In this document: piece after piece, positions 10 to 10,090 of the stretch
Position numbering within the stretch: the stretch's first letter is position 1
Layout of the letters: every line of letters begins with the position of its first letter
From: an uncultured Eubacteriales bacterium
GTDB taxonomy: Bacteria > Bacillota > Clostridia > Lachnospirales > Lachnospiraceae
Reading direction: 5' to 3'
Assembly: GCA_900313855.1 (NCBI GenBank)
Contig: OMSZ01000047.1
Span: forward strand, 1-10,251
Length of the DNA: 10,251 bases
The notes under the pieces: generated by a model
What the model was told of the DNA's origin: nothing
The model's database searches: none
The model's input: the letters and a program-made list of their open reading frames with translations, nothing else
Translations under genes and position numbers: made by a program

Positions 10-1908
10 TCAGGCTGTCTGAGCATCTAATAATCTTAAAAATTCTTCTTCAGGAACAGGCTTTGAGAAATAGTAGCCCTGAATGAAATCAATATCTATT
101 CCGGCAAGCTCGTCTAACTGGTATTGTTCTTCAACACCCTCTGCAACGATCTCTAAGTCGGCTGCCTTGACCATGTTGATGACACTTCCGATAACTGCCT
201 GTCTCTTCTCATTTTCAAAATAAGCCAGAGTCATTTTTCTGTCAAACTTTACAATTTCTATTGGAAGCTCTAACAGATAATCTAAGTTGGAATAACCGGT
301 TCCGAAATCATCAAGCGAGAAGGTAATGCCCATATCTATCATTTTCTTCATATTGCTAATTAGTATTTCAGGAGAACTTATTCCTTTGGATTCAGTAATC
401 TCAAGATTGATCATGCTTGGATCGATACCGACCTCGTCAATCACTTTTTTGAACTCATCAGCCAGATCTGATCTCATACATTGTATGGCGGAAAGATTAA
501 TTTCCAAGTAATGGATCCCCTTTTCATAGAGCTTATGTTCAACCATGAATTGACAGGCTTTTTTGAAAACTATTATACCTATCTGTAAGATCAAGCCGGT
601 ATCCTCAGCTACAGGTATGAATGCTCCCGGAGGGATGATGTTTCCGTCTGTGTCAACGATCCTTACTAAAGCTTCAGCAGATAAGAATCTCCCGGCGGCT
701 GTAGAGTATATTGGCTGATAGAATACCTTGATACGGTCATCTTTGATAGCAGATACTATTACATCTTCGATATTCTGTTCACGCCTGTAATTTGCAGCCC
801 ATTCATCGCCCATGAAAAGATGTCTGTCAGAGCTGTTAGAATAATCTCTGCGGAAGGCTCTCATCATTTCCAACATACTTTCAGCATCCCGAGCGATGAA
901 GGAATTAGGGATCTTGGTATAGATCAGATCGATATTGGCTCTTTCGCCTTCTATCTCCCATATTCTGTCCAATTTTGAGTATAACTTATTAGCGGCTTCA
1001 TCCAAATTGATCTTTCTTGAGAAGGTAATAACGAATTCCCATTCTCTGTATCTGAAAACGTTTCCTTTGGTACTCTCATCAAGGGTTTTACAGAATTCCT
1101 TAAGGAAAAGATTGATATTATCAGTATAATAGCGCTCGTAGAGATAATGTGGATTGGCAAATTGAACTATCATCATGGATATCCGCTCACCCCTGTTATA
1201 GCACTGTTCTAAGTAGGTGTTAAAGGCTAGATCATTAAAGCAGCCTGTTTCACGCTCGATAAAGCTCTCGGGATTTTCCAGTCGGATATACACTATCAGT
1301 ATTCCCAAAGCGCTTGAAAAGCCGATGATCAAAAGAGAATTATTCAAAAATTGTACGATAGCCGCAACTACAAGAAGAACCATCCAGTTCATTCCGGATA
1401 TCCAGCGCCTTTTGCTAAGCTTTTTCTTATATTTGATAAGAATATAACAGTTAACGATAATGAATATAAATGCTGCCAAATATGTATATAACACAGCAGG
1501 GCCATAAGAATATAAGTCAGTTCTTGATGTATGATGTATGTAGATTGGAAGAAACGGTATTATGAAGCTTGATAAACATATGAAAATCTGTGAGATAATC
1601 CTGTGGTAATGCATAAAACTGCTCTTTGCACCGACACTTACGGTCGTATAAAAATTCATGGAAAAGCACATCCATACCAAAGATATAAGGTATGCTTTGC
1701 ATATCGCTCTAGTGAAAACAGTAAAATGACCATGTGCATTAACTATTGCAATTATTGAAAGAACATCAAGAACCAATGCAACCAGGGTACCGCAAAGCGC
1801 AGCAATAAAAGCCTGCTTAGAATGCAGACGGATAGATTTCCTGTTATTAGACAACAGGAGTAATAAGATCATTAATGCTATACCGCAAAGCTGCACTTGA
1901 ATGTTCAT
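10..1908 (-). CDS. Membrane-bound c-di-GMP phosphodiesterase (7TM + degenerate GGDEF + EAL)
   Basis: Predicted to hydrolyse cyclic di-GMP to pGpG at the inner face of the membrane. Of 632 residues, about 1-210 hold seven hydrophobic segments (roughly 8-20, 33-57, 68-90, 103-124, 138-158, 174-190, 191-208) with no recognisable sensor fold. Residues about 217-365 look like a GGDEF domain: ETGCFNDLAF (220-229) resembles the family's TGxxNRxAF start, but the active-site loop reads RYREWEFV (286-293) instead of GGDEF, so diguanylate cyclase activity is unlikely. The EAL domain (about 378-628) is complete: E412 in AEAL, N471 in NLSA, E503 in LEITE, D533-D534 in DDFGTGY, K554 in VKFD, E590 in AEGVE and Q610 in QGY. 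All known metal-binding and catalytic positions are present, so an active phosphodiesterase is expected. The start is supported by GAAGGG eight bases upstream. The gene is divergent from the peptidase gene; its stop lies nine bases from the window edge, so no terminator can be judged. Confidence 0.93.
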   Translation of the reverse strand: MNIQVQLCGIALMILLLLLSNNRKSIRLHSKQAFIAALCGTLVALVLDVLSIIAIVNAHGHFTVFTRAICKAYLISLVWMCFSMNFYTTVSVGAKSSFMHYHRIISQIFICLSSFIIPFLPIYIHHTSRTDLYSYGPAVLYTYLAAFIFIIVNCYILIKYKKKLSKRRWISGMNWMVLLVVAAIVQFLNNSLLIIGFSSALGILIVYIRLENPESFIERETGCFNDLAFNTYLEQCYNRGERISMMIVQFANPHYLYERYYTDNINLFLKEFCKTLDESTKGNVFRYREWEFVITFSRKINLDEAANKLYSKLDRIWEIEGERANIDLIYTKIPNSFIARDAESMLEMMRAFRRDYSNSSDRHLFMGDEWAANYRREQNIEDVIVSAIKDDRIKVFYQPIYSTAAGRFLSAEALVRIVDTDGNIIPPGAFIPVAEDTGLILQIGIIVFKKACQFMVEHKLYEKGIHYLEINLSAIQCMRSDLADEFKKVIDEVGIDPSMINLEITESKGISSPEILISNMKKMIDMGITFSLDDFGTGYSNLDYLLELPIEIVKFDRKMTLAYFENEKRQAVIGSVINMVKAADLEIVAEGVEEQYQLDELAGIDIDFIQGYYFSKPVPEEEFLRLLDAQTA

Positions 1909-2106: not shown

Positions 2107-4575
2107 ATGGATAAGAATGGAGGAAGAGAGAAACATATAACTGATGGCGGCAAGGGCGTCAGCAAAAGAGGGGATGGTTTAGGAACCGGTCCTGTTGGCA
2201 GAAGTGACGGCTATTCGGGAAGAAACAGTGGAAGCGGCAGTAACGCTCCTTCGGGCAGAGCCGGCAATGATATGGCGGGAGGGACGAAGATGAGTCCGAA
2301 AACCGCTATCATAGTGCTGGTGATCATGCTGCTGCTTGGAGGCGGCGGTGGCGGTGCAGCGCTGCTTGGTGGTGGTGACAGTAATGATGGTGGCAGCGCA
2401 ACCTCCAATAATAATACTGTAACACAGAATACAGATAATAATGTCGCAAATGATCAGACAGGCAGCTCACCGTCAAGTCTGTTGGGAATGCTGACCGGTT
2501 TTACGGGAAGCAACAATGTGTCTACAGGTTGGGACGAAGGAACCAATAATACAGGAAAGCTTAACCGGCAGGTGGCAGCGGGAGCGCGCGATAAAAGAAC
2601 GACAATAATCGGTAATGGACAGGATACTATCACTATCATGATATATACCTGTGGAACCGATCTTGAATCCCGCGGCGGTATGGCATCTAATGATATAGCT
2701 GAGATGTGTGCGGCAACACTTTCCAATAAGATCAATATTCTCATATATACCGGTGGATGTAAGCAGTGGAAGACAACCGGTATAAGCAATGACGTTAATC
2801 AGATATATAAAGTGAGCAACGGAAGGTTAGAGCGCCTTAAAGAAGATGATGGCGCGAAGGTGATGACAGATCCGGCGACGCTTACGGCATTTATAAAGTT
2901 CTGTAGTGAGAATTATCCGGCTAACAGAAATGATCTTATATTCTGGGATCATGGCGGCGGTTCGATAAGCGGTTACGGATATGACGAGAAGTATGCAAGT
3001 AAGGGGTCCATGAGCCTTTCGGGCATCAATAAGGCGCTCAAGGATTCGGGAATGACTTTTGATTTCATCGGATTTGACGCCTGCCTTATGGCTACCTTAG
3101 AGACGGCGCTTATGACATCTAACTATGCTGATTATCTTATTGCTTCAGAGGAGACAGAGCCCGGTATAGGATGGTATTATACCGACTGGTTGAACTCGCT
3201 GTCACAGAATACCTCACAGGATACGCTTGATACCGGCAAGAATATTGTCGATAGCTTTGTGGCAAAATGCAACGAGAAATGCCAGGGACAGAAAACCACA
3301 TTATCAGTGATCGATCTTTCTGAGTTCTCCGAAACGGTTCCAAAAAAGCTTGCAGCATTTTCTAACGGAACTAAGGGACTTATTAAGGGAGATAATTACA
3401 AGCAGGTATCGGATGCAAGAGCAGGCGCAAGGGAATTTGCCGTCAAATCAAAGATTGACCAGATCGATCTTGTCAATTTTGCTAACCAGATAGGAACTGA
3501 TGAGGCGAAGGAGCTGTCAGATACCCTGCTTTCGGCAGTAAAGTATAATCAAACATCTTCTAATATGACTAATGCCTATGGAGTTTCCATTTACTTCCCA
3601 TACAGAAGGGCATCTAAGGTTGATTCTCAGGTTAATCTCTATAATGAGATAGGAATGGATAATGAGTACTCACAGTGCATTAAGTCTTTTGCAGGAATGG
3701 AGACATCGGGACAGATAAGCACAGGTGGGGCATCTTCTCCGCTTACCACTTTGCTTGGAATGAGTGGCGAGGGAGGAACGACTACCGGTGCCGATGCGCT
3801 TGGAGCTTTGCTTTCTGCCTATATGTCAGGCGGAAGAAGTGTTGAGGGAATTGACAGAAATGCTACTGAGTACATGCAGGATGAGGACGCATTTGATGCA
3901 GAAAGTGCTGCTGACTATATCGCTGCTAATCAGTTTATAGCTGAGGATATGGTTTGGGAGACCAACGAAGACGGACAGCATATCATGGCAATTGCTGATG
4001 ATAAATGGGCGCTTATTCAGTCACTGCAGGTCAATATGTTTTATGATGACGGAGCCGGTTATATAGACCTTGGTCTTGATAATACATACGAGTTTACCGA
4101 TGACGGAAGACTTATAGGGGATACTGATGATACATGGATCTCCATTGATGGTCAGCCGGTAGCATATTACTATGAGAATACTGTTAAGGATGGAGACAGA
4201 TATACGATCACGGGGCGCGTTCCCTGTATGATCAATGATGACAGAGCCAATCTGATCATAGTATTTGATAATGAGCATCCGTACGGATATATTGCAGGCG
4301 CAAGATATGATTATGTTAATGGCGAGACTGAGACGGTTGCTAAGAGTATGACGGAGATAGCAGTCGGTGATGTTATCGATTTCGTTTGTGATTATTATAC
4401 TTACAACGGTCAGTATCAGGACAGCTATTACCTTGGAGAGCCGATGACCTATAAAGAGAATATGGAGATCAGTAATACTAAGGTTGACGGCGACACAAAG
4501 ATAACATATCTGCTTACCGATATATATGATCAGGAATACTGGACTCCTGTGGTACCAAAGCAGGAAATGGATTGA
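2107..4575 (+). CDS. Membrane-anchored clostripain-family (C11) cysteine peptidase
   Basis: Predicted extracytoplasmic cysteine endopeptidase of family C11 (clan CD), a family that usually cleaves after Arg or Lys. The 822-residue protein starts with a polar, Gly/Ser/Lys/Arg-rich stretch (1-64) without a cleavable signal. One hydrophobic segment follows (about 66-88, with a run of glycines at 78-83), then a low-complexity Asn/Ser/Thr/Gly linker to about 165. Positive charge before the helix predicts N-terminus inside and the rest outside. The catalytic domain (about 173-530) shows ITIMIYTCGTDLES (175-188), the histidine motif FWDHGGG (H282) and the cysteine motif FDACLM (C326). A second linker (about 530-580) leads to a C-terminal region (600-822) rich in Asp, Tyr and Gly that I do not recognise. 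It is much longer than secreted clostripain. No Lys/Arg-rich autoprocessing linker like that of clostripain is evident inside the catalytic domain. No clear terminator follows. Confidence 0.9.
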   Translation: MDKNGGREKHITDGGKGVSKRGDGLGTGPVGRSDGYSGRNSGSGSNAPSGRAGNDMAGGTKMSPKTAIIVLVIMLLLGGGGGGAALLGGGDSNDGGSATSNNNTVTQNTDNNVANDQTGSSPSSLLGMLTGFTGSNNVSTGWDEGTNNTGKLNRQVAAGARDKRTTIIGNGQDTITIMIYTCGTDLESRGGMASNDIAEMCAATLSNKINILIYTGGCKQWKTTGISNDVNQIYKVSNGRLERLKEDDGAKVMTDPATLTAFIKFCSENYPANRNDLIFWDHGGGSISGYGYDEKYASKGSMSLSGINKALKDSGMTFDFIGFDACLMATLETALMTSNYADYLIASEETEPGIGWYYTDWLNSLSQNTSQDTLDTGKNIVDSFVAKCNEKCQGQKTTLSVIDLSEFSETVPKKLAAFSNGTKGLIKGDNYKQVSDARAGAREFAVKSKIDQIDLVNFANQIGTDEAKELSDTLLSAVKYNQTSSNMTNAYGVSIYFPYRRASKVDSQVNLYNEIGMDNEYSQCIKSFAGMETSGQISTGGASSPLTTLLGMSGEGGTTTGADALGALLSAYMSGGRSVEGIDRNATEYMQDEDAFDAESAADYIAANQFIAEDMVWETNEDGQHIMAIADDKWALIQSLQVNMFYDDGAGYIDLGLDNTYEFTDDGRLIGDTDDTWISIDGQPVAYYYENTVKDGDRYTITGRVPCMINDDRANLIIVFDNEHPYGYIAGARYDYVNGETETVAKSMTEIAVGDVIDFVCDYYTYNGQYQDSYYLGEPMTYKENMEISNTKVDGDTKITYLLTDIYDQEYWTPVVPKQEMD

Positions 4576-4681: not shown

Positions 4682-4750
4682 ATAATTTATGACAAAGTTA
4701 TCGGGGTTATATGATTTATTTCAATTATTTATGAAGAATGAATATACGAG

Positions 4751-4755
4751 AGGAG
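4751..4755 (+). promoter_or_regulatory. Ribosome binding site that sets the chemoreceptor start
   Basis: AGGAG lies eight bases before the ATG at 4764. The in-frame ATG at 4689 has only AT-rich sequence in front of it, so the 25 extra residues it would add are probably not translated. Confidence 0.85.
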
Positions 4756-4763
4756 AATATATT

Positions 4764-6263
4764 ATGGGTGATAACGAAAAGAGTTTTTTCCTTAAACAGA
4801 AGGAGCTTTCTTTGGCTAACAAGAATGCAGTGAGGGCGTTAACTATCTTAGATTCGATCATTTCGGTGGCATATCTTATAGAGATATTCAAGCACACAAG
4901 AACTGTCGGATATGTGATGATGGTCATTGCGCTTGCGATGATACCGGTTGTGATTTCGCATATTGATTACAGAGCTGACAATGCTTCACCAAGAACCAGG
5001 CATATAGTGGCTATCGGTTTTGCTATTCTTTATACTACAGTATTATTTACAACCGAGAATATTCTTGTTTTCACCTATGCCATACCTATGCTTGTAGTGA
5101 TAACCTTATATGATGATGTGAAATTAATCGTATTAAATGGTGGTGGAGTGGCAATAATTAATATTATTCAAGTCGCTGTTTCATTTGCAAAGGGTAAGGA
5201 AGTCAATACCGCTATGGCAGAGATTCAGGTGCTTGTGTTGATAGTGATAGTTGCTTATCTTGTAATGGTGGTTAATACTAACAGTGTAACCCATAAAATG
5301 AGAGAAGAGGACTTAGGTGCAGAGCATGCAAGAACAACACAGCTTTTAGATGAGATTCTTTCTGTTTCCGGTAAGGTTACGGATACGGTTGCAGAGCTTG
5401 CAAGAGAGATGGATACATTAAAGGGCTCGGTTGATCAGACGTTAAACTCTATGGAAGAGGTGAGCAAGGGTACAAGCGAATCTGCAGACGCAGCTCAGAC
5501 ACAGCTTGAACAGACTACCGAGATTTCCAAGCATATCAAGGATGTCGAAGCAGCTTCAGGAACTATTACCGAGAATGTTGATACGGCAGCAGATGCAGTA
5601 GCAACGGGTCAGGATAATATTTCAAGAATGACAAAGCTTACCGTTCAGGTCGATACCGCGGGAAAAGACGTTGCAAGCGCATTGTCAACCTTCCAGCAGA
5701 CCGCTGCAGAGATGAATTCCATTACGGATATTATTACCAATGTAGCTTCCCAGACAAGCCTTCTTGCATTAAATGCTTCTATTGAGGCAGCAAGAGCAGG
5801 CGAGGCAGGACGAGGCTTTGCGGTTGTTGCAAGTGAGATCTCTAATCTTGCAGGACAGACAACAGAGGCTACCGAGAATATTACCTCGCTTATCAATCAG
5901 GTCGTTTCCCAGGTAGATACCATGGTTTCCACGATAGAGAAGCTGCTTAAGGCAGGCGAGGAAGAAAGTAAATGTGCTGCTGATACGGCAGTAAGCTTTG
6001 ACCAGATATCAGGAGTTGTTGATGTTATCAAGACACACACAGCAGATCTTGATACACTTGTAGATCAGCTTGCGAAAGCGAATGAAGAGATTGTCAACAG
6101 CATACAGACAACCTCGGCTATTACAGAACAGGTTACTGCACATGCTACGGAGACCTACAGCATCAGTGAGGAGAATCAAAGAATAGTTGAGCATATCAAT
6201 ACTCTGGTTGATGACCTTAATGAGGATGCACAGTCTCTTAAGGCGCATGAGAACGAGGCTTGA
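4764..6263 (+). CDS. Methyl-accepting chemotaxis protein, six membrane helices, no HAMP
   Basis: A transmembrane chemoreceptor expected to signal through CheW/CheA to the flagellar motor. With the start set by AGGAG at 4751-4755 it has 499 residues. About 22-171 form six hydrophobic segments (22-41, 47-65, 80-97, 99-115, 121-140, 153-171) with very short loops and no large extracellular ligand domain, unlike classical two-helix receptors. The last helix runs into NTNSVTHKMREED and then a long coiled coil. No HAMP domain is apparent. The signalling domain carries the conserved hairpin tip (about 324-365), including SLLALNASIEAARAGEAGRG and then FAVVASEISNLA. There is no C-terminal NWETF-like CheR-docking pentapeptide. 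The few-residue loops suggest that it senses something in or across the membrane, such as a lipophilic compound or energy state. The ligand is unknown. It is a single-gene unit, with its own promoter and a strong terminator. Confidence 0.95.
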   Translation: MGDNEKSFFLKQKELSLANKNAVRALTILDSIISVAYLIEIFKHTRTVGYVMMVIALAMIPVVISHIDYRADNASPRTRHIVAIGFAILYTTVLFTTENILVFTYAIPMLVVITLYDDVKLIVLNGGGVAIINIIQVAVSFAKGKEVNTAMAEIQVLVLIVIVAYLVMVVNTNSVTHKMREEDLGAEHARTTQLLDEILSVSGKVTDTVAELAREMDTLKGSVDQTLNSMEEVSKGTSESADAAQTQLEQTTEISKHIKDVEAASGTITENVDTAADAVATGQDNISRMTKLTVQVDTAGKDVASALSTFQQTAAEMNSITDIITNVASQTSLLALNASIEAARAGEAGRGFAVVASEISNLAGQTTEATENITSLINQVVSQVDTMVSTIEKLLKAGEEESKCAADTAVSFDQISGVVDVIKTHTADLDTLVDQLAKANEEIVNSIQTTSAITEQVTAHATETYSISEENQRIVEHINTLVDDLNEDAQSLKAHENEA

Positions 6264-6282
6264 TCAATAAAGATTATTTAAG

Positions 6283-6328
6283 GTGCTGCGTATGTTTATG
6301 GTTCTGATAAATATGCGCAGCACTTTTT
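6283..6328 (+). terminator. Strong intrinsic terminator after the chemoreceptor gene
   Basis: Two 17-base arms (6283-6299 and 6307-6323) pair along their whole length with two G-T wobbles, closed by a seven-base loop. The GC-rich foot is GTGCTGCG/CGCAGCAC. TTTTT follows at 6324-6328 and a second TTTTT after GG. It isolates the chemoreceptor transcript from the redox cassette. Confidence 0.93.
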
Positions 6329-6338
6329 GGTTTTTGTA

Positions 6339-6367
6339 TTATTATATGGAGAGCGAGTTTTGATAAT
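6339..6367 (+). promoter_or_regulatory. Weak candidate promoter for the redox cassette
   Basis: GATAAT (6362-6367) is a good -10 match, but the hexamer 17 bases before it, TTATTA (6339-6344), is only a 3/6 match to TTGACA. A promoter is needed somewhere in 6329-6384 because a strong terminator stands upstream. This is the best candidate I see. Confidence 0.3.
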
Positions 6368-6383
6368 TTAAAAGGAATAGAAT

Positions 6384-6390
6384 AAGGAGG
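6384..6390 (+). promoter_or_regulatory. Ribosome binding site that sets the thioredoxin start
   Basis: AAGGAGG ends only two bases before the ATG at 6393 but eight bases before the in-frame ATG at 6399. The spacing favours 6399. Confidence 0.85.
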
Positions 6391-6398
6391 ATATGGTT

Positions 6399-7028
6399 AT
6401 GAGAAAAAAATATCGTATGAACTTAAAAATGATCGCAGGTGCGGCAGCTTTAAGCATAACTTTGCTTTTGACAGGCTGTGGAGCAGATAATATATCCGGT
6501 GATAAAGAGGGTCAGGATGTGATCACGACAGCTGTGGAGGACACAGAAGCAGATGCTGCAAAAGAGGATGGCGGGAATGCTGTGTCTGAAACTGCAGAAG
6601 ATGATAAAGATCTTGCTCCGGATTTTACAGCTGAGCTTGTCGGCGGCGGAAGCTTTTCTCTTTCTGAGAACAGAGGAAAGGTTGTTCTTATTAATATATG
6701 GGCTACATGGTGTGGTCCTTGTGTTGAGGAGATGCCCGCGTTTGAAAAGCTTAACGGTGAATATGGTGATGATGTAAAAATAATCTGCGTCAATTGTTAT
6801 GAGGACAAAAAATCTGTAGACAGATTTGTAAGTGAGAACGGATATACATTTCCTGTTGCATATGATGAGGATGGAGCGATCAATGGTCTGTACCCAACAG
6901 ATGGAATACCTTATACTCTTGTGATCGGAAAAGACGGAAAGGTTAAGAACAGCTATGTAGGTTCAAGCGGTATGGAAGAACAGTATAGGACCTATAAGGC
7001 GGCAATAGACGCAGCGCTTGCAGAGTAG
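6399..7028 (+). CDS. TlpA-like thioredoxin-fold lipoprotein
   Basis: A membrane-tethered, extracytoplasmic thiol:disulfide oxidoreductase of the TlpA/ResA type, most likely a reductant of exported proteins or of a partner enzyme. Ribosome binding site spacing favours the ATG at 6399, giving 209 residues; the ATG at 6393 would add two. MRKKYRMNLK precedes a hydrophobic stretch and the lipobox LLTGC, with the lipidated Cys at 27. An acidic spacer (about 28-72) precedes the thioredoxin fold (73-209). WCGPC is at 104-108 inside VVLINIWATWCGPC, and the cis-proline is P171 in GIPYTLVI. A second cysteine pair, CVNC (130-133), lies at the end of the next strand, where relatives usually have no cysteines. 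The stop overlaps the ribosome binding site of the next small gene, so the genes are translationally close and probably form an operon. Confidence 0.93.
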   Translation: MRKKYRMNLKMIAGAAALSITLLLTGCGADNISGDKEGQDVITTAVEDTEADAAKEDGGNAVSETAEDDKDLAPDFTAELVGGGSFSLSENRGKVVLINIWATWCGPCVEEMPAFEKLNGEYGDDVKIICVNCYEDKKSVDRFVSENGYTFPVAYDEDGAINGLYPTDGIPYTLVIGKDGKVKNSYVGSSGMEEQYRTYKAAIDAALAE

Positions 7029-7033
7029 AGGAG
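7028..7033 (+). promoter_or_regulatory. Ribosome binding site of the 59-residue CXXC protein gene
   Basis: GAGGAG begins on the last base of the thioredoxin stop codon and lies nine bases before the GTG at 7043. It is the main evidence that this small GTG-initiated frame is translated. Confidence 0.75.
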
Positions 7034-7042
7034 TCTGATATC

Positions 7043-7222
7043 GTGGAGGATAAAGCAGTTAATAATGTTTCTCGTTCAAAGGAATATGTTAAGAGATTCG
7101 TTCAAATTGTAATGATCCTTGCCGGTATAACTCTTATTGTACTGGGTATTTACAGTGGCAATGTGACCGATATCTGGAATAAGGCTGTTCACATATGCTA
7201 CGAATGTATCGGCATTGGATGA
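7043..7222 (+). CDS. Small single-helix CXXC membrane protein, CD1871A-like
   Basis: A 59-residue frame starting with GTG that is easily missed by gene finders. A good ribosome binding site overlaps the preceding stop. Residues 1-18 are polar and basic at the end (SKEYVKRF). Residues about 19-36 form one hydrophobic helix (FVQIVMILAGITLIVLGI). The tail ends HICYECIGIG, with C52 and C55 in a CXXC motif. Lys/Arg before the helix predicts the CXXC outside. The motif and the gene order match the family that NCBI annotates as CD1871A family CXXC motif-containing protein, as I recall it. No function has been shown that I know of. I infer that it relays electrons or a disulfide between the polyferredoxin downstream and the thioredoxin lipoprotein upstream. 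Confidence 0.85.
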   Translation: MEDKAVNNVSRSKEYVKRFVQIVMILAGITLIVLGIYSGNVTDIWNKAVHICYECIGIG

Positions 7223-7245
7223 GATTTTTATTTATTTGTCTTATT

Positions 7246-7251
7246 AAGGAG
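7246..7251 (+). promoter_or_regulatory. Ribosome binding site of the polyferredoxin gene
   Basis: AAGGAG lies 11 bases before the ATG at 7263, a slightly long but acceptable spacing. No better start is nearby. Confidence 0.65.
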
Positions 7252-7262
7252 TAGAAGCGTTA

Positions 7263-8093
7263 ATGAAGACCGGAAGAGCAAAGCGCAGATTTATTCAGGT
7301 TATCTGCGCCGTTCTATACAACTGTAATATAACCGGATTTGCCAAGGGGAAGATATATCAGGGAAAGGTAAAGGGTGCCTGTATGCCGGGACTTAACTGC
7401 TATTCCTGTCCGGGGGCAGTCGGCGCCTGTCCGCTTGGCAGTCTTCAACAGGCGTTAGTATCCTCAAAATATAAGTTTAACTATTATGTGTTAGGTATCC
7501 TTTTGTTGTTTGGCGTGATCTTGGGTCGTGTCGTTTGTGGTTTTTTGTGTCCGTTTGGATTAATTCAGGAGCTGCTATATAAGCTGCCGACTAAGAAGAT
7601 CAGGAAAGGCACCTGGAGTCAGGTGATGTCATATCTGAAATATGTAATTCTTGCAGTCCTTGTTATCGGTATTCCTCTTGCAATAAATGTTCCAGGATTC
7701 TGTAAATATGTATGTCCGGCAGGAACCTTAGAGGGCGGCATACCGCTTGTGCTTATGCAGGAAAAGCTTTATGAATTAGCAGGAGCGCTGTTTACATGGA
7801 AAATGATAGTGCTTATTGTGATACTTCTCGCTTCTGTTTTTATTTTCCGGTTTTTCTGCAGGTTTATTTGTCCATTAGGCGCCATTTATTCGTTGTTTCA
7901 TAAGGTGTCTTTATGTAGAGTTAAGGTTGATGAGAAGAAATGTATCGGCTGTAACATATGTGTCCGCGAGTGTCTGATGGATGTTAAATGTGTAGGTGAC
8001 CACGAGTGCATACATTGCGGAGAATGTATTGAGAAATGTCCGACCGGGGCGATAAACTATAAGAATCGGATGATGTTTACCGAACATAAATAA
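7263..8093 (+). CDS. NapH-like membrane polyferredoxin (4Fe-4S binding protein)
   Basis: A 276-residue integral membrane iron-sulfur protein related to the NapH/NosR/RdxA-type ferredoxins, which move electrons at the membrane. An N-terminal Cys cluster (C40, C46, C49-Pro, C56-Pro) precedes the first clear helix (about 72-91). Membrane-edge CxxxCP motifs follow: C92GFLC96P, C147KYVC151P and C199RFIC203P. The helices between them span about 121-142 and 179-199. The C-terminus is a complete two-cluster ferredoxin domain: C227, C230, C233, C237 and C249, C252, C255, C259-Pro. It contains no haem-binding CXXCH or flavin motif that I can see. Forty bases separate it from the CXXC gene, consistent with one operon. 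I infer that it carries electrons from a cytoplasmic donor to the CXXC protein and the thioredoxin lipoprotein. The alternative is a general NapH-like redox subunit of another enzyme encoded elsewhere. Confidence 0.9.
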   Translation: MKTGRAKRRFIQVICAVLYNCNITGFAKGKIYQGKVKGACMPGLNCYSCPGAVGACPLGSLQQALVSSKYKFNYYVLGILLLFGVILGRVVCGFLCPFGLIQELLYKLPTKKIRKGTWSQVMSYLKYVILAVLVIGIPLAINVPGFCKYVCPAGTLEGGIPLVLMQEKLYELAGALFTWKMIVLIVILLASVFIFRFFCRFICPLGAIYSLFHKVSLCRVKVDEKKCIGCNICVRECLMDVKCVGDHECIHCGECIEKCPTGAINYKNRMMFTEHK

Positions 8094-8105
8094 AGACCGG
8101 TTATT

Positions 8106-8783
8106 TTATCGGGAATTTAAGTACCTGCATATTCCCACAGATATGGAATAAGCAATATCTTTTTGATAATTGGAATCTGTAAGCATGGCGGTTTCATCGG
8201 GGTTGGAGAGAAAGCCGCATTCTACTATTACGGCGGGAACGGAGTTATGCTTTAACAGGTAATAGCTGTCGTTGGCTTTTTCAACACGTTTGTTGGTGGG
8301 ATCTATGCCAAGCAGTGATTTCTGGATCTGCTTTGCGAGGGTTTTACTTTCATCATTTCCTTTGTAATAGAAGGTCTGCGCACCGTGCTGCGACGGATCG
8401 GGATAGCTGTTTTGATGAATGCTGATCACAAGATCGGCGTTTTTTTCTTTGAAAAACTGTATGCGGTTGTTAAGATCGGATCTTTTTTTGTTGGAAACAT
8501 TTTCATCATAAAGCCCCCTGTCGGTATCTCTTGTCAGAAAAACAGTATAATCATGAGCGATCAGATAGTCCTGAAGGTATTTGGCAATCGCTAAATTAAT
8601 ATTCTTCTCCTCTATGCCATCGGGGCTTACCTTGCCTGGATCTGAGCCGCCATGTCCGACATCTATGACTATAATTGCAGAGTGCAGCTTTGTTGAAAAT
8701 ACATTTTCGGTAAATCCTTCAGAGATCAAAGGTGAAAATAAGAGGAGTGTGATTAAGAATGCACGGAGGATATCTTTTTTCAT
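8106..8783 (-). CDS. cwlD: CwlD-like N-acetylmuramoyl-L-alanine amidase
   Basis: A zinc amidase (Amidase_3 family) that cuts the bond between N-acetylmuramic acid and the stem peptide. Residues 1-23 contain a hydrophobic segment after MKKD, either a signal peptide or an anchor, so it acts outside the cytoplasm or in the intermembrane space of the forespore. The zinc ligands are visible as H44 in DVGHGG, E59 in IEEKN and H123 in SIHQN. The catalytic glutamate is E188 in VECGFLSNP. The 225-residue length and the single catalytic domain without SPOR, SH3 or LysM repeats resemble Bacillus subtilis CwlD, which works with PdaA to make muramic-delta-lactam in spore cortex. A sigma-E-like promoter upstream agrees. 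The ribosome binding site is poor. It is convergent with the polyferredoxin gene, with 12 bases between stops. The amidase call is firm; the cwlD assignment is probable but rests on likeness and promoter. Confidence 0.9.
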   Translation of the reverse strand: MKKDILRAFLITLLLFSPLISEGFTENVFSTKLHSAIIVIDVGHGGSDPGKVSPDGIEEKNINLAIAKYLQDYLIAHDYTVFLTRDTDRGLYDENVSNKKRSDLNNRIQFFKEKNADLVISIHQNSYPDPSQHGAQTFYYKGNDESKTLAKQIQKSLLGIDPTNKRVEKANDSYYLLKHNSVPAVIVECGFLSNPDETAMLTDSNYQKDIAYSISVGICRYLNSR

Positions 8784-8965: not shown

Positions 8966-10090
8966 ATGGGTATGGAAATGGATAATAAAGCTTTGAGAAA
9001 TACTATTATAATAGATGCTAAAGGGAGTGCAGGTTTATTGGATGAACCTGACAAAAGCCTTGATAAAGCGGCCAAATGTTTAAGAAATGGCGGACTGGTA
9101 GCATTTCCGACAGAGACGGTGTATGGTCTTGGAGCAGATGGTCTTAATCCTGAGGCATCGAAGAAGATATACGCAGCAAAGGGCAGACCATCGGATAATC
9201 CGCTTATCGTGCATATAGCGGATATGGAGGCGTTAGAGAAGCTGGCATATACCAATGAAAAGGCTTATACTTTAGCTCACGCGTTCTGGCCGGGTCCGCT
9301 TACGATAATACTTCCCAAAAGGGATGTGGTTCCGAAGGAGACAACGGGAGGGCTTGATACGGTTGCGATCCGTATGCCTTCACATCCGGCAGCCTTAGAG
9401 CTTATACGTTTGTCCGGAGTGTATGTTGCGGCGCCGTCGGCTAATATTTCAGGAAGACCGTCACCAACGACAGCGGCCCATGTTATTGAGGATATGAGTG
9501 GAAGGATTGATTACATCATTGATGGCGGACCGGTTGGTATAGGGATAGAGTCAACGATCGTTGATCTGTCAGGTGAGGTGCCTGCAATCTTAAGACCGGG
9601 ATTTATTACAAAGCGTATGTTAGAGGATATGATTGGTGAGGTTGTTATCGATCCTGCGATAGCAGATCCAAAGGAAAGTGTTTTAAAGGGACTTAAGCCG
9701 AAAGCACCCGGAATGAAGTATACACATTATGCGCCAAAGGGTGAACTGACACTGGTCGAAAAGGGTTCGGATAATGTGACGGGAGGCGAGCCGGTTATAG
9801 ATAAGATAAGGGAGCTTGCCAAAGAGAAAATGGAATCAGGCTATAAGGTAGGTATCATGGCACCACAGGAAACGGTATCATTGTATGAAGGATATGCCGA
9901 TTATGTAGTATGCGTGGGCGAAAGGAAGGAGCAGGCGACGATAGCGGCCGGATTATATTCGGCGTTGCGCTCCTTTGATGATGCAGGCGCTGAGTATATA
10001 TATGCGGAAAGTTTTCGCGGTGAGGGATTGTCTTACGCGATAATGAACAGGCTGCTTAAGGCAGCGGGACAGAGAGTAATTTATGTGTGA
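8966..10090 (+). CDS. Sua5/YwlC L-threonylcarbamoyladenylate synthase
   Basis: Makes threonylcarbamoyl-AMP from L-threonine, bicarbonate and ATP, the first step of t6A37 formation on tRNAs that read ANN codons. It acts in the cytoplasm with TsaD/TsaB/TsaE. The 374 residues give the full two-domain Sua5 form rather than the short YrdC form. The YrdC domain (about 32-225) shows FPTETVYGLGAD (47-58), KGRPSDNPL (72-80) and PSANISGRPSPT (157-168). The conserved linker PKAPGMKYTHYAP is at 245-257. The Sua5 domain follows (about 258-374), ending SFRGEGLSYAIMNRLLKAAG. The N-terminus is about 20 residues longer than is usual. Three in-frame ATGs (8966, 8972, 8978) follow an in-frame TAA at 8957, none with a convincing ribosome binding site, so the exact start is open. 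It stands alone on its strand. Confidence 0.95.
   Translation: MGMEMDNKALRNTIIIDAKGSAGLLDEPDKSLDKAAKCLRNGGLVAFPTETVYGLGADGLNPEASKKIYAAKGRPSDNPLIVHIADMEALEKLAYTNEKAYTLAHAFWPGPLTIILPKRDVVPKETTGGLDTVAIRMPSHPAALELIRLSGVYVAAPSANISGRPSPTTAAHVIEDMSGRIDYIIDGGPVGIGIESTIVDLSGEVPAILRPGFITKRMLEDMIGEVVIDPAIADPKESVLKGLKPKAPGMKYTHYAPKGELTLVEKGSDNVTGGEPVIDKIRELAKEKMESGYKVGIMAPQETVSLYEGYADYVVCVGERKEQATIAAGLYSALRSFDDAGAEYIYAESFRGEGLSYAIMNRLLKAAGQRVIYV

What the first reader, a model, noticed from the sequence alone, without database searches (positions are those of the whole stretch)
6399..8093. Three-gene redox cassette: thioredoxin lipoprotein, 59-residue CXXC membrane protein, polyferredoxin
Seen: a lipobox thioredoxin (WCGPC), a one-helix protein ending in CYEC with predicted N-in/C-out topology, and a membrane protein with four extra Cys motifs plus two complete 4Fe-4S sites, spaced as one operon. 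No CcdA/DsbD gene is in the window. Known: TlpA-type proteins need reducing power from the membrane, and NapH-like proteins carry electrons. Inference: this is an iron-sulfur route that exports low-potential electrons to extracytoplasmic thiols, with the small protein as the thiol relay. I know of no characterised pathway of this design.
Basis: partly seen in the sequence, partly recalled or inferred. Interest (0 to 1): 0.72.

Follow-up and report, generated by a model that had tools for sequence, protein, structure and literature searches.

The report
Three-protein iron-sulfur thiol-reducing module
Three neighbouring genes, found together in many anaerobic bacteria, look like a wire that carries electrons from iron-sulfur clusters inside the cell to a thioredoxin outside it, a job usually credited to a different kind of membrane protein.

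Summary
In detail: a thioredoxin lipoprotein (6399-7028), a 59-residue one-helix protein ending CYECIGIG (7043-7222) and a membrane polyferredoxin (7263-8093), on one strand. They form a real module. In 156 class genomes, polyferredoxin and small protein occur in the same 22; in 398 phylum genomes, all 54 with the small family carry the polyferredoxin, 53 within 1.2 kb. In 101 loci (21 from the class genomes), the small gene is next to the polyferredoxin in 101 and a thioredoxin gene close in 98. Natural fusions exist: polyferredoxin-thioredoxin in 41 loci, polyferredoxin-small in 4. Twelve of 18 invariant cysteines are shared with E. coli NapH; the six predicted to face outward are not. Selenocysteine codons replace the first CXXC cysteine in one small protein and two thioredoxins. 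DsbD/CcdA is rarer in carriers, though 19 of 59 have it. The small protein is already named (CD1871A family); I found no paper on it. Most likely: an iron-sulfur route reducing extracytoplasmic thiols. Electron direction, donor, relay order and clients are inferred; structure models were too weak to help.

The parts
6280..6326 (+). Terminator-like hairpin plus T-run between the upstream methyl-accepting chemotaxis gene and the cassette
   Evidence: consensus match, 3 such sites found in 6200-8300 against 1.5 expected in shuffles
6399..7028 (+). TlpA/ResA-like thioredoxin lipoprotein (lipobox LLTGC 6465-6479; WCGPC 6708-6722)
   Evidence: only PF08534 match in the window's genome (80% complete)
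7043..7222 (+). CD1871A-family small one-helix protein; CYEC at 7196-7207, C-terminal IGIG; predicted N-in/C-out
   Evidence: 45.4 bits, cut-off 32; charge bias; topology from natural fusions
7263..8093 (+). NapH-like membrane polyferredoxin
   Evidence: next to the small gene in 101 of 101 fetched loci
7380..7430 (+). C40-x5-C46-x2-C49-x6-C56 set, predicted extracytoplasmic; absent from E. coli NapH
7536..7550 (+). C92-x3-C96-P, predicted cytoplasmic side, shared with NapH
7701..7715 (+). C147-x3-C151-P, predicted extracytoplasmic; absent from E. coli NapH
7857..7871 (+). C199-x3-C203-P, predicted cytoplasmic side, shared with NapH
7941..8039 (+). Two [4Fe-4S] ferredoxin sites (C227/230/233/237 and C249/252/255/259), predicted cytoplasmic

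Best explanation
The cassette is a self-contained transmembrane thiol-reducing module. The polyferredoxin takes electrons on the cytoplasmic side, probably from reduced ferredoxin, through its two ferredoxin clusters and a NapH-like four-cysteine site, and passes them to a clade-specific six-cysteine extracytoplasmic site that probably holds a [4Fe-4S] cluster. There one-electron chemistry is turned into two-electron thiol chemistry: the C-terminal CxEC of the small protein is reduced and hands the electrons to the WCGPC of the TlpA lipoprotein, which reduces disulfides or oxidised substrates outside the cell. It does the job that CcdA/DsbD does elsewhere, by iron-sulfur electron transfer instead of thiol-disulfide exchange across the membrane. 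Shown: the three proteins go together as one unit, the cysteines are conserved, and part of them is specific to this unit. Supported by inference: topology, and that both CXXC pairs are redox-active. Inferred only: cluster occupancy, direction, donor, relay order, clients.
For: Co-occurrence: in the class set both are in 22 genomes and the other 134 have neither the polyferredoxin clade nor a small-family match over its cut-off; in the phylum set 54 of 54 small-family genomes have the polyferredoxin and 53 of 54 are within 1.2 kb on the same strand. Of 59 polyferredoxin genomes, 5 lack an NF040920 hit; 3 of these have a divergent CXXC small gene beside it and the other 2 show neither small gene nor TlpA nearby. 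101 loci: small gene 101, at most 424 bases away; TlpA 98, each of these with a CxxC or UxxC; three orders of the genes. Fusions: polyferredoxin-TlpA 41, polyferredoxin-small 4 (DNA of one read), each with a hydrophobic stretch between ferredoxin and thiol parts. Cysteines: 18 invariant; the 12 inward ones are shared with E. coli NapH and two NapH-like proteins; of the 6 outward ones NapH and one NapH-like protein have none, the other a single C aligned at position 56. Selenocysteine: small protein ULEC, TlpA UPSC in two genomes, all three genomes with SelA and tRNA-Sec. DsbD_TM in 19 of 59 carriers against 248 of 339 others, and 7 of 22 against 77 of 134.
Against: DsbD/CcdA is present in a third of carriers, so the module is not simply its replacement. 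Genomes and loci are related, so the Fisher p-values overstate independence. AlphaFold models of both fusions are too weak to place the CXXC (mean pLDDT 62.9 and 77.3, under 50 in the N-terminal cysteine loop). The first membrane crossing is only weakly hydrophobic, so the outside position of C40-C56 rests on the other helices and the charges. No conserved client gene was found. The module is patchy: the four other genomes of the window's family in the class set lack it. The selenocysteine in the small protein is one genome of the surveys, without a congener to confirm it, and its SECIS-like hairpin is no more stable than shuffles. One genome (G184, L244) has an intact-looking polyferredoxin beside a small gene that is broken, by mutation or by sequencing error.
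Confidence: 0.62

Rival explanations
1. Same electron export, but the small protein is not a relay. It is a structural or ligand subunit: its CxEC helps to hold the extracytoplasmic cluster or docks TlpA, and the polyferredoxin reduces TlpA directly.
For: The small protein is tiny, its C-terminal G-x-G is as conserved as the CxxC, and polyferredoxin-TlpA fusions outnumber polyferredoxin-small ones 41 to 4, though in a sample with many close relatives.
Against: A selenocysteine codon at the first CXXC position is the usual mark of a catalytic thiol rather than a ligand, though it is one case. The small gene is kept beside all 41 polyferredoxin-TlpA fusions.
Confidence: 0.2
2. The electrons come from a quinol, as proposed for NapH, not from ferredoxin; the module links the quinone pool to extracytoplasmic thiols.
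For: The polyferredoxin keeps the twelve NapH cysteines and its best named models are NapH.
Against: It scores far below the NapH cut-offs (71.0 against 213 and 56.9 against 234). Many carriers are gut or rumen Clostridia by their record titles and so probably fermenters (recalled); whether they make menaquinone was not tested.
Confidence: 0.1
3. The flow is inward: TlpA and the small protein oxidise extracytoplasmic thiols and the polyferredoxin takes the electrons into the cell, as an oxidative-folding or electron-recovery route.
For: Nothing in the sequence fixes the direction.
Against: TlpA/ResA proteins with WCGPC are reductants in characterised cases (recalled), ferredoxin is too reducing to accept electrons from thiols (recalled), and carriers are depleted in DsbD/CcdA, which fits a replacement for reducing power.
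Confidence: 0.05
4. The module is a maturation or sensing device: thiol chemistry on TlpA and the small protein keeps or builds the extracytoplasmic cluster, which reports redox state to a neighbouring two-component system.
For: Neighbour clusters whose sampled members are a histidine kinase and a response regulator lie within 5 kb in 17 and 15 of 101 loci.
Against: Those neighbours are absent from most loci, including the window, and their position and strand vary.
Confidence: 0.03

Closest known systems
CD1871A family CXXC motif-containing protein (NCBIfam NF040920)
   Same: The small protein is a member (45.4 bits, cut-off 32). The plasmid record of Peptoclostridium acidaminophilum names it so beside a '4Fe-4S binding protein'.
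   Different: The family has a name and a domain model, but searches for 'CD1871A' and 'NF040920' found no paper; linkage, topology, fusions and a selenocysteine form are added here.
NapH of periplasmic nitrate reduction
   Same: Twelve cysteines predicted at the cytoplasmic side and the membrane core align with E. coli NapH.
   Different: Six further cysteines, predicted extracytoplasmic; no NapG/NapA genes in the window; scores far below the NapH cut-offs.
Flavinylated NapH-like systems (PMC8238504, passages read)
   Same: A Fer4_5 membrane protein proposed to carry electrons across the membrane to varied partners.
   Different: Those have an FMN-binding domain on or beside the NapH-like protein; here the partner is a thiol pair. 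The G075 comparison protein looks to be of the FMN type by its SGAT motifs (by eye) and lacks all six outward cysteines.
CcdA/DsbD with TlpA/ResA/Etrx lipoproteins
   Same: Same proposed output: reducing power for extracytoplasmic thioredoxin-fold lipoproteins; the window's TlpA matches ResA by sequence and the TlpA part of a fusion matches ResA and Etrx by fold.
   Different: No PF02683 domain; electrons would cross by iron-sulfur clusters rather than by a cysteine pair.
Ferredoxin:thioredoxin reductase
   Same: Proposed conversion of ferredoxin electrons into a reduced CXXC by way of a [4Fe-4S] cluster (recalled analogy).
   Different: Soluble and cytoplasmic or plastidic (recalled); homology was not tested.

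Membership tests
CD1871A family (NF040920) | Score over the curated cut-off of 32 bits | tested here: met
   45.4 bits
CD1871A family (NF040920) | C-terminal CXXC motif | tested here: met
   CYECIGIG; of 101 relatives 98 have C.EC, one U.EC, one CTQC, one CKAC
Fer4_5 domain family (PF12801) | Score over the gathering cut-off | tested here: met
   73.7 bits against 22
NapH (TIGR02163, NF007013) | Score over the curated cut-offs | tested here: not met
   71.0 against 213.05 and 56.9 against 234; all 35 fusion relatives match TIGR02163, and the one whose score is shown reaches 78.1
NapH | nap neighbours such as napG and napA | tested here: not met
   None among the window's eight scanned proteins
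Flavinylated NapH-like system | FMN-binding domain on the protein or on a neighbour | tested here: not met
   None on the window's eight scanned proteins; not among families matched by two or more of 73 adjacent genes of relatives (which lists 25 of 84 families, so single cases are not excluded)
TlpA/ResA-like redoxin (PF08534, PF00578) | Domain cut-off and CXXC | tested here: met
   92.6 against 26.6 and 84.5 against 26; WCGPC
ResA or StoA proper (NF002854, NF041202) | Curated cut-off | tested here: not met
   103.3 against 170 and 81.5 against 210
CcdA/DsbD (PF02683) | DsbD_TM domain | tested here: not met
   No match in the window's scanned proteins or its genome, 80% complete
Selenoprotein form of the small protein | UGA at a conserved Cys, SelA and tRNA-Sec in the genome | tested here: met
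   L039/G084
Selenoprotein form of the small protein | SECIS element | tested here: inconclusive
   Six-pair hairpin with GGGU loop 19-22 bases after the UGA, z-score 0.26; in the longer of the two stretches folded another pairing wins
Transmembrane thiol-reducing system | Electron transfer to an extracytoplasmic thioredoxin | not testable with these tools
   Needs biochemistry

The most novel reading that the evidence does not exclude
A separate class of transmembrane thiol-reducing machine: instead of the cysteine-pair relay of CcdA/DsbD, a four-cluster iron-sulfur wire carries ferredoxin electrons across the membrane to an outward-facing cluster that reduces a one-helix CXXC (in one genome selenocysteine-containing) relay and, through it, an extracytoplasmic thioredoxin: in effect a membrane-spanning ferredoxin:thioredoxin reductase of Clostridia.
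Probability: 0.5. Interest if true: 0.86.

Novelty: new variant of a known kind. Interest (0 to 1): 0.74.

Why it matters
How anaerobic Firmicutes without CcdA/DsbD supply reducing power to thiols outside the membrane is, as far as my ten paper searches show, unanswered. This module would be an answer, tied directly to ferredoxin, the main low-potential carrier of fermenters. It gives a testable role to a named protein family, found in 54 of 398 sampled genomes of the phylum, on which I found no paper, and it shows how a NapH-type wire could gain an outward cysteine site and a thiol partner.

Tried and rejected
Both were too weak in the cysteine loop to ask whether CXXC meets the cluster site, and no coordinate file was found in the Python box. 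Foldseek of the second model listed only thioredoxin-fold matches in its 50 rows shown. An alignment with separate small proteins added was dropped because MAFFT placed them at the wrong end.

Client search: neighbour clustering, Pfam on one member of each of the three largest clusters (oligopeptide permease, histidine kinase, response regulator) and a Pfam tally of 73 of 75 adjacent same-strand genes (two were not carried over when I wrote the list) gave no recurrent substrate enzyme, so no client is proposed.

Considered and rejected: chance neighbours (co-occurrence and fusions); NapH or a flavinylated NapH-like system (membership tests); a plasmid-borne accessory (1 of 72,556 plasmid records at E 1e-30). 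A first reading that some TlpA partners lack the active site was dropped: the pattern used demanded a W at a fixed place, and all 98 loci keep a CxxC or UxxC; only a second TlpA copy in L241 lacks it.

Papers: ten searches. Passages were read from PMC8238504, PMC13188914, PMC9312934 and PMC10434189; all other papers were seen only as search listings. No paper describing this pathway was found; most subscription papers, and preprints, are not held.
Full report
WHAT IS THERE. The window holds, on the + strand, a TlpA/ResA-like lipoprotein (6399-7028), a 59-residue protein (7043-7222) and a 276-residue membrane polyferredoxin (7263-8093). Each has a Shine-Dalgarno-like sequence by eye; the gaps are 14 and 40 bases. 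A terminator-like hairpin at 6280-6326 separates them from the upstream chemotaxis gene, and none lies in the two gaps. The lipoprotein matches Redoxin at 92.6 bits and carries lipobox LLTGC and WCGPC. The small protein matches NCBIfam NF040920, the CD1871A family, at 45.4 bits against a cut-off of 32, and nothing in Pfam at E 0.01. The polyferredoxin matches Fer4_5 twice and Fer4 twice, and NapH models far below their cut-offs. In the window's own genome (80% complete) this TlpA is the only PF08534 match and no DsbD_TM domain was found.

IT IS A MODULE. I surveyed 156 genomes of the class (the window's own included; the others drawn with at least 90% completeness). The small family was over its cut-off in 22, and the polyferredoxin clade (E 1.1e-74 or better) was in the same 22. 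Two other genomes had NapH-like proteins near 1e-21, and one (G146) had a below-cut-off small protein without cysteines and no polyferredoxin. The four other genomes of the window's family had neither, so the module is patchy. In 398 genomes of the phylum the polyferredoxin scores split cleanly, 202 bits and above against 117 and below: 59 genomes lie above the gap (at most five first-look candidates were scored in each genome, so some could be missed). The small family was found at E 0.001 in 54, 44 of them over the cut-off, and all 54 are among the 59; 53 of 54 pairs lie on one strand within 1.2 kb, the other 2.3 kb apart. Of the five polyferredoxin genomes without a hit, three have a divergent small gene ending CLSCIGV, CFSCIGL or CLSCIGI plus one residue beside it, and two show neither small gene nor TlpA in the 11 and 12 kb fetched. 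The two surveys share some genomes, and related genomes are not independent. A search of 96 genomes of the family of G084 found the small family over its cut-off in 10; of these only G204 and G166, besides G034 and G084, were followed up. G184, below the cut-off there, has a polyferredoxin beside a broken small gene.

The small gene is on the same strand next to it in 101 of 101, median gap 23 bases, largest 424. A TlpA gene or domain on the same strand is close (starts within 2.6 kb) in 98, and in all 98 it keeps a CxxC or UxxC; the three misses are L037, L039 and L141, of which L141 is a 5.3-kb contig. Gene order varies: small-polyferredoxin-TlpA is commonest, then TlpA-small-polyferredoxin, and four loci have the small domain last. 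Many of the 80 are metagenome-assembled and some closely related.

FUSIONS. In 41 loci, all among the 80, polyferredoxin and TlpA are one open frame; in 4 (L095, L096, L100, L103) polyferredoxin and small protein are one open frame (the DNA of L103 is). A hydrophobic 19-residue stretch (mean hydropathy 1.57 to above 2) lies between the ferredoxin and the thiol part in all 41 and all 4. If the ferredoxin sites face the cytoplasm, which is their usual place (recalled) and fits the charges, CxEC and TlpA both lie outside. Positive charges agree: in 73 of 101 small proteins the 12 residues before the helix hold more K+R than the tail after it, 20 are equal and 8 hold fewer.

CYSTEINES. Eighteen cysteines of the polyferredoxin are invariant in alignments of 27, 60 and 35 sequences. 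Hydropathy shows three clear helices and a weak first one. With the ferredoxin domain inside, C92, C96, C199, C203 and the eight ferredoxin cysteines are inside, and C40, C46, C49, C56, C147 and C151 outside. Aligned with E. coli K-12 NapH and two NapH-like proteins of surveyed genomes, all twelve inside cysteines are shared by all three. Of the six outside ones NapH and the G075 protein have none, and the G079 protein has a single C aligned at position 56. The outward set thus goes with the thiol partners. Its service as a cluster site is inference.

SELENOCYSTEINE. In G084 (L039) the small gene has TGA at the first CXXC cysteine and then reads LECIGIG and a normal stop. In G017 (L035) and G136 (L038) the TlpA beside the polyferredoxin has TGA at the first active-site cysteine, UPSC. 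These three genomes have SelA over its cut-off and a tRNA-Sec match over its gathering score (65.1, 72.5 and 72.4 bits). A short hairpin follows the UGA of the small gene, but it is not more stable than shuffles and another pairing wins in a longer stretch; no congener was available. Of 91 distinct small-family places listed this is the only one with an in-frame TGA. Two reviews say that most selenoproteins probably serve redox functions, as homologues of thiol oxidoreductases or carriers of redox motifs such as UxxC (PMC9312934 and PMC13188914, passages read). A term search of the text of PMC13188914 for NF040920 found nothing.

RELATION TO CcdA/DsbD. At E 0.001 DsbD_TM is present in 84 of 156 class genomes, 7 of the 22 carriers and 77 of 134 others, and in 267 of 398 phylum genomes, 19 of 59 carriers and 248 of 339 others (tallied by hand; Fisher p 0.037 and 2.8e-9, not corrected for kinship). 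Carriers lack it more often, but a third have it.

SURROUNDINGS. No neighbour recurs enough to name a client. The commonest clusters within 5 kb occur in 21, 17 and 15 of 101 loci, at varying places and strands; the member of each that I scanned is an oligopeptide-type permease, a histidine kinase and a response regulator. A Pfam tally of 73 adjacent same-strand genes found no family in more than three. The plasmid record of Peptoclostridium acidaminophilum lists TlpA disulfide reductase family, CD1871A family and 4Fe-4S binding protein, with an MFS gene on the other strand between the first two.

STRUCTURE. AlphaFold on the two kinds of natural fusion gave mean pLDDT 62.9 and 77.3; the cysteine loop is below 50 in both, so the models decide nothing about contacts. 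The TlpA part matches ResA and similar structures. A search of solved structures with the polyferredoxin profile matched, in the 60 of 170 rows shown, only from about position 214 on, that is the ferredoxin part.

HOW IT LIKELY WORKS. Reduced ferredoxin, or another cytoplasmic donor, gives electrons to the two ferredoxin clusters; they pass the four-cysteine inner site and reach the outer site; the small protein's CxEC next to it takes two electrons and reduces TlpA; TlpA serves extracytoplasmic substrates. Shown: linkage, fusions, cysteine conservation, specificity of the outward set among the proteins compared. Inferred: everything about electron flow.

NOVELTY. The parts belong to known families and the small one has a name. 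The combination, an iron-sulfur membrane protein with a CXXC helix and a thioredoxin, is not described in any paper that my ten searches found. I rate it a new variant of the NapH-like membrane electron carriers; if electron flow to thiols is shown it would be a new class of transmembrane thiol reductant.

Noticed in passing
L039 (G084) 7904-8038: Small CXXC protein with TGA at the first cysteine (ULECIGIG), in a genome with SelA and tRNA-Sec: possibly a selenoprotein family not yet listed.
   Followed up: partly
L035 1673-2338; L038 3301-3924: TlpA partners with TGA at the active site (WVTTUPSC, WGTFUPSC).
   Followed up: partly
L046 7709-7861 (G146): Relative of the small protein with no cysteines (SLHYIGIG) in a genome without the polyferredoxin; a CAT-family acetyltransferase gene and an ABC transporter ATPase gene lie near.
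   Followed up: partly
L237-L241 (G204): Five copies of the small gene in one genome, each with a polyferredoxin; the polyferredoxin copy in L238 is interrupted by an in-frame stop, and one of two TlpA copies in L241 lacks its cysteines.
   Followed up: partly
L109 5986-8124; L125 5986-8112: Polyferredoxin fusions that seem to carry two thioredoxin-like domains, the first apparently without its cysteines (by eye).
   Followed up: no
L114, L133, L143, L150 and others: The small domain is the end of a longer open frame with further hydrophobic stretches (by eye; start codons not verified).
   Followed up: no
L227-L234, L236: Divergent subclade whose small genes end CxSC[IV]G[IVL] plus one residue (L233: CLACMGL plus two), with polyferredoxins of 202-255 bits.
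   Followed up: partly
window 2107-4575: Clostripain-family (Peptidase C11) protein with a long Gly/Ser/Asn-rich N-terminal part and a hydrophobic stretch.
   Followed up: no
window 8106-8783 (-): CwlD-like spore cortex amidase, 217.2 bits, just under the curated cut-off of 221.55.
   Followed up: no
window 10-1908 (-), 4689-6263, 8966-10090: EAL-domain protein, methyl-accepting chemotaxis protein and Sua5-type threonylcarbamoyladenylate synthase.
   Followed up: no
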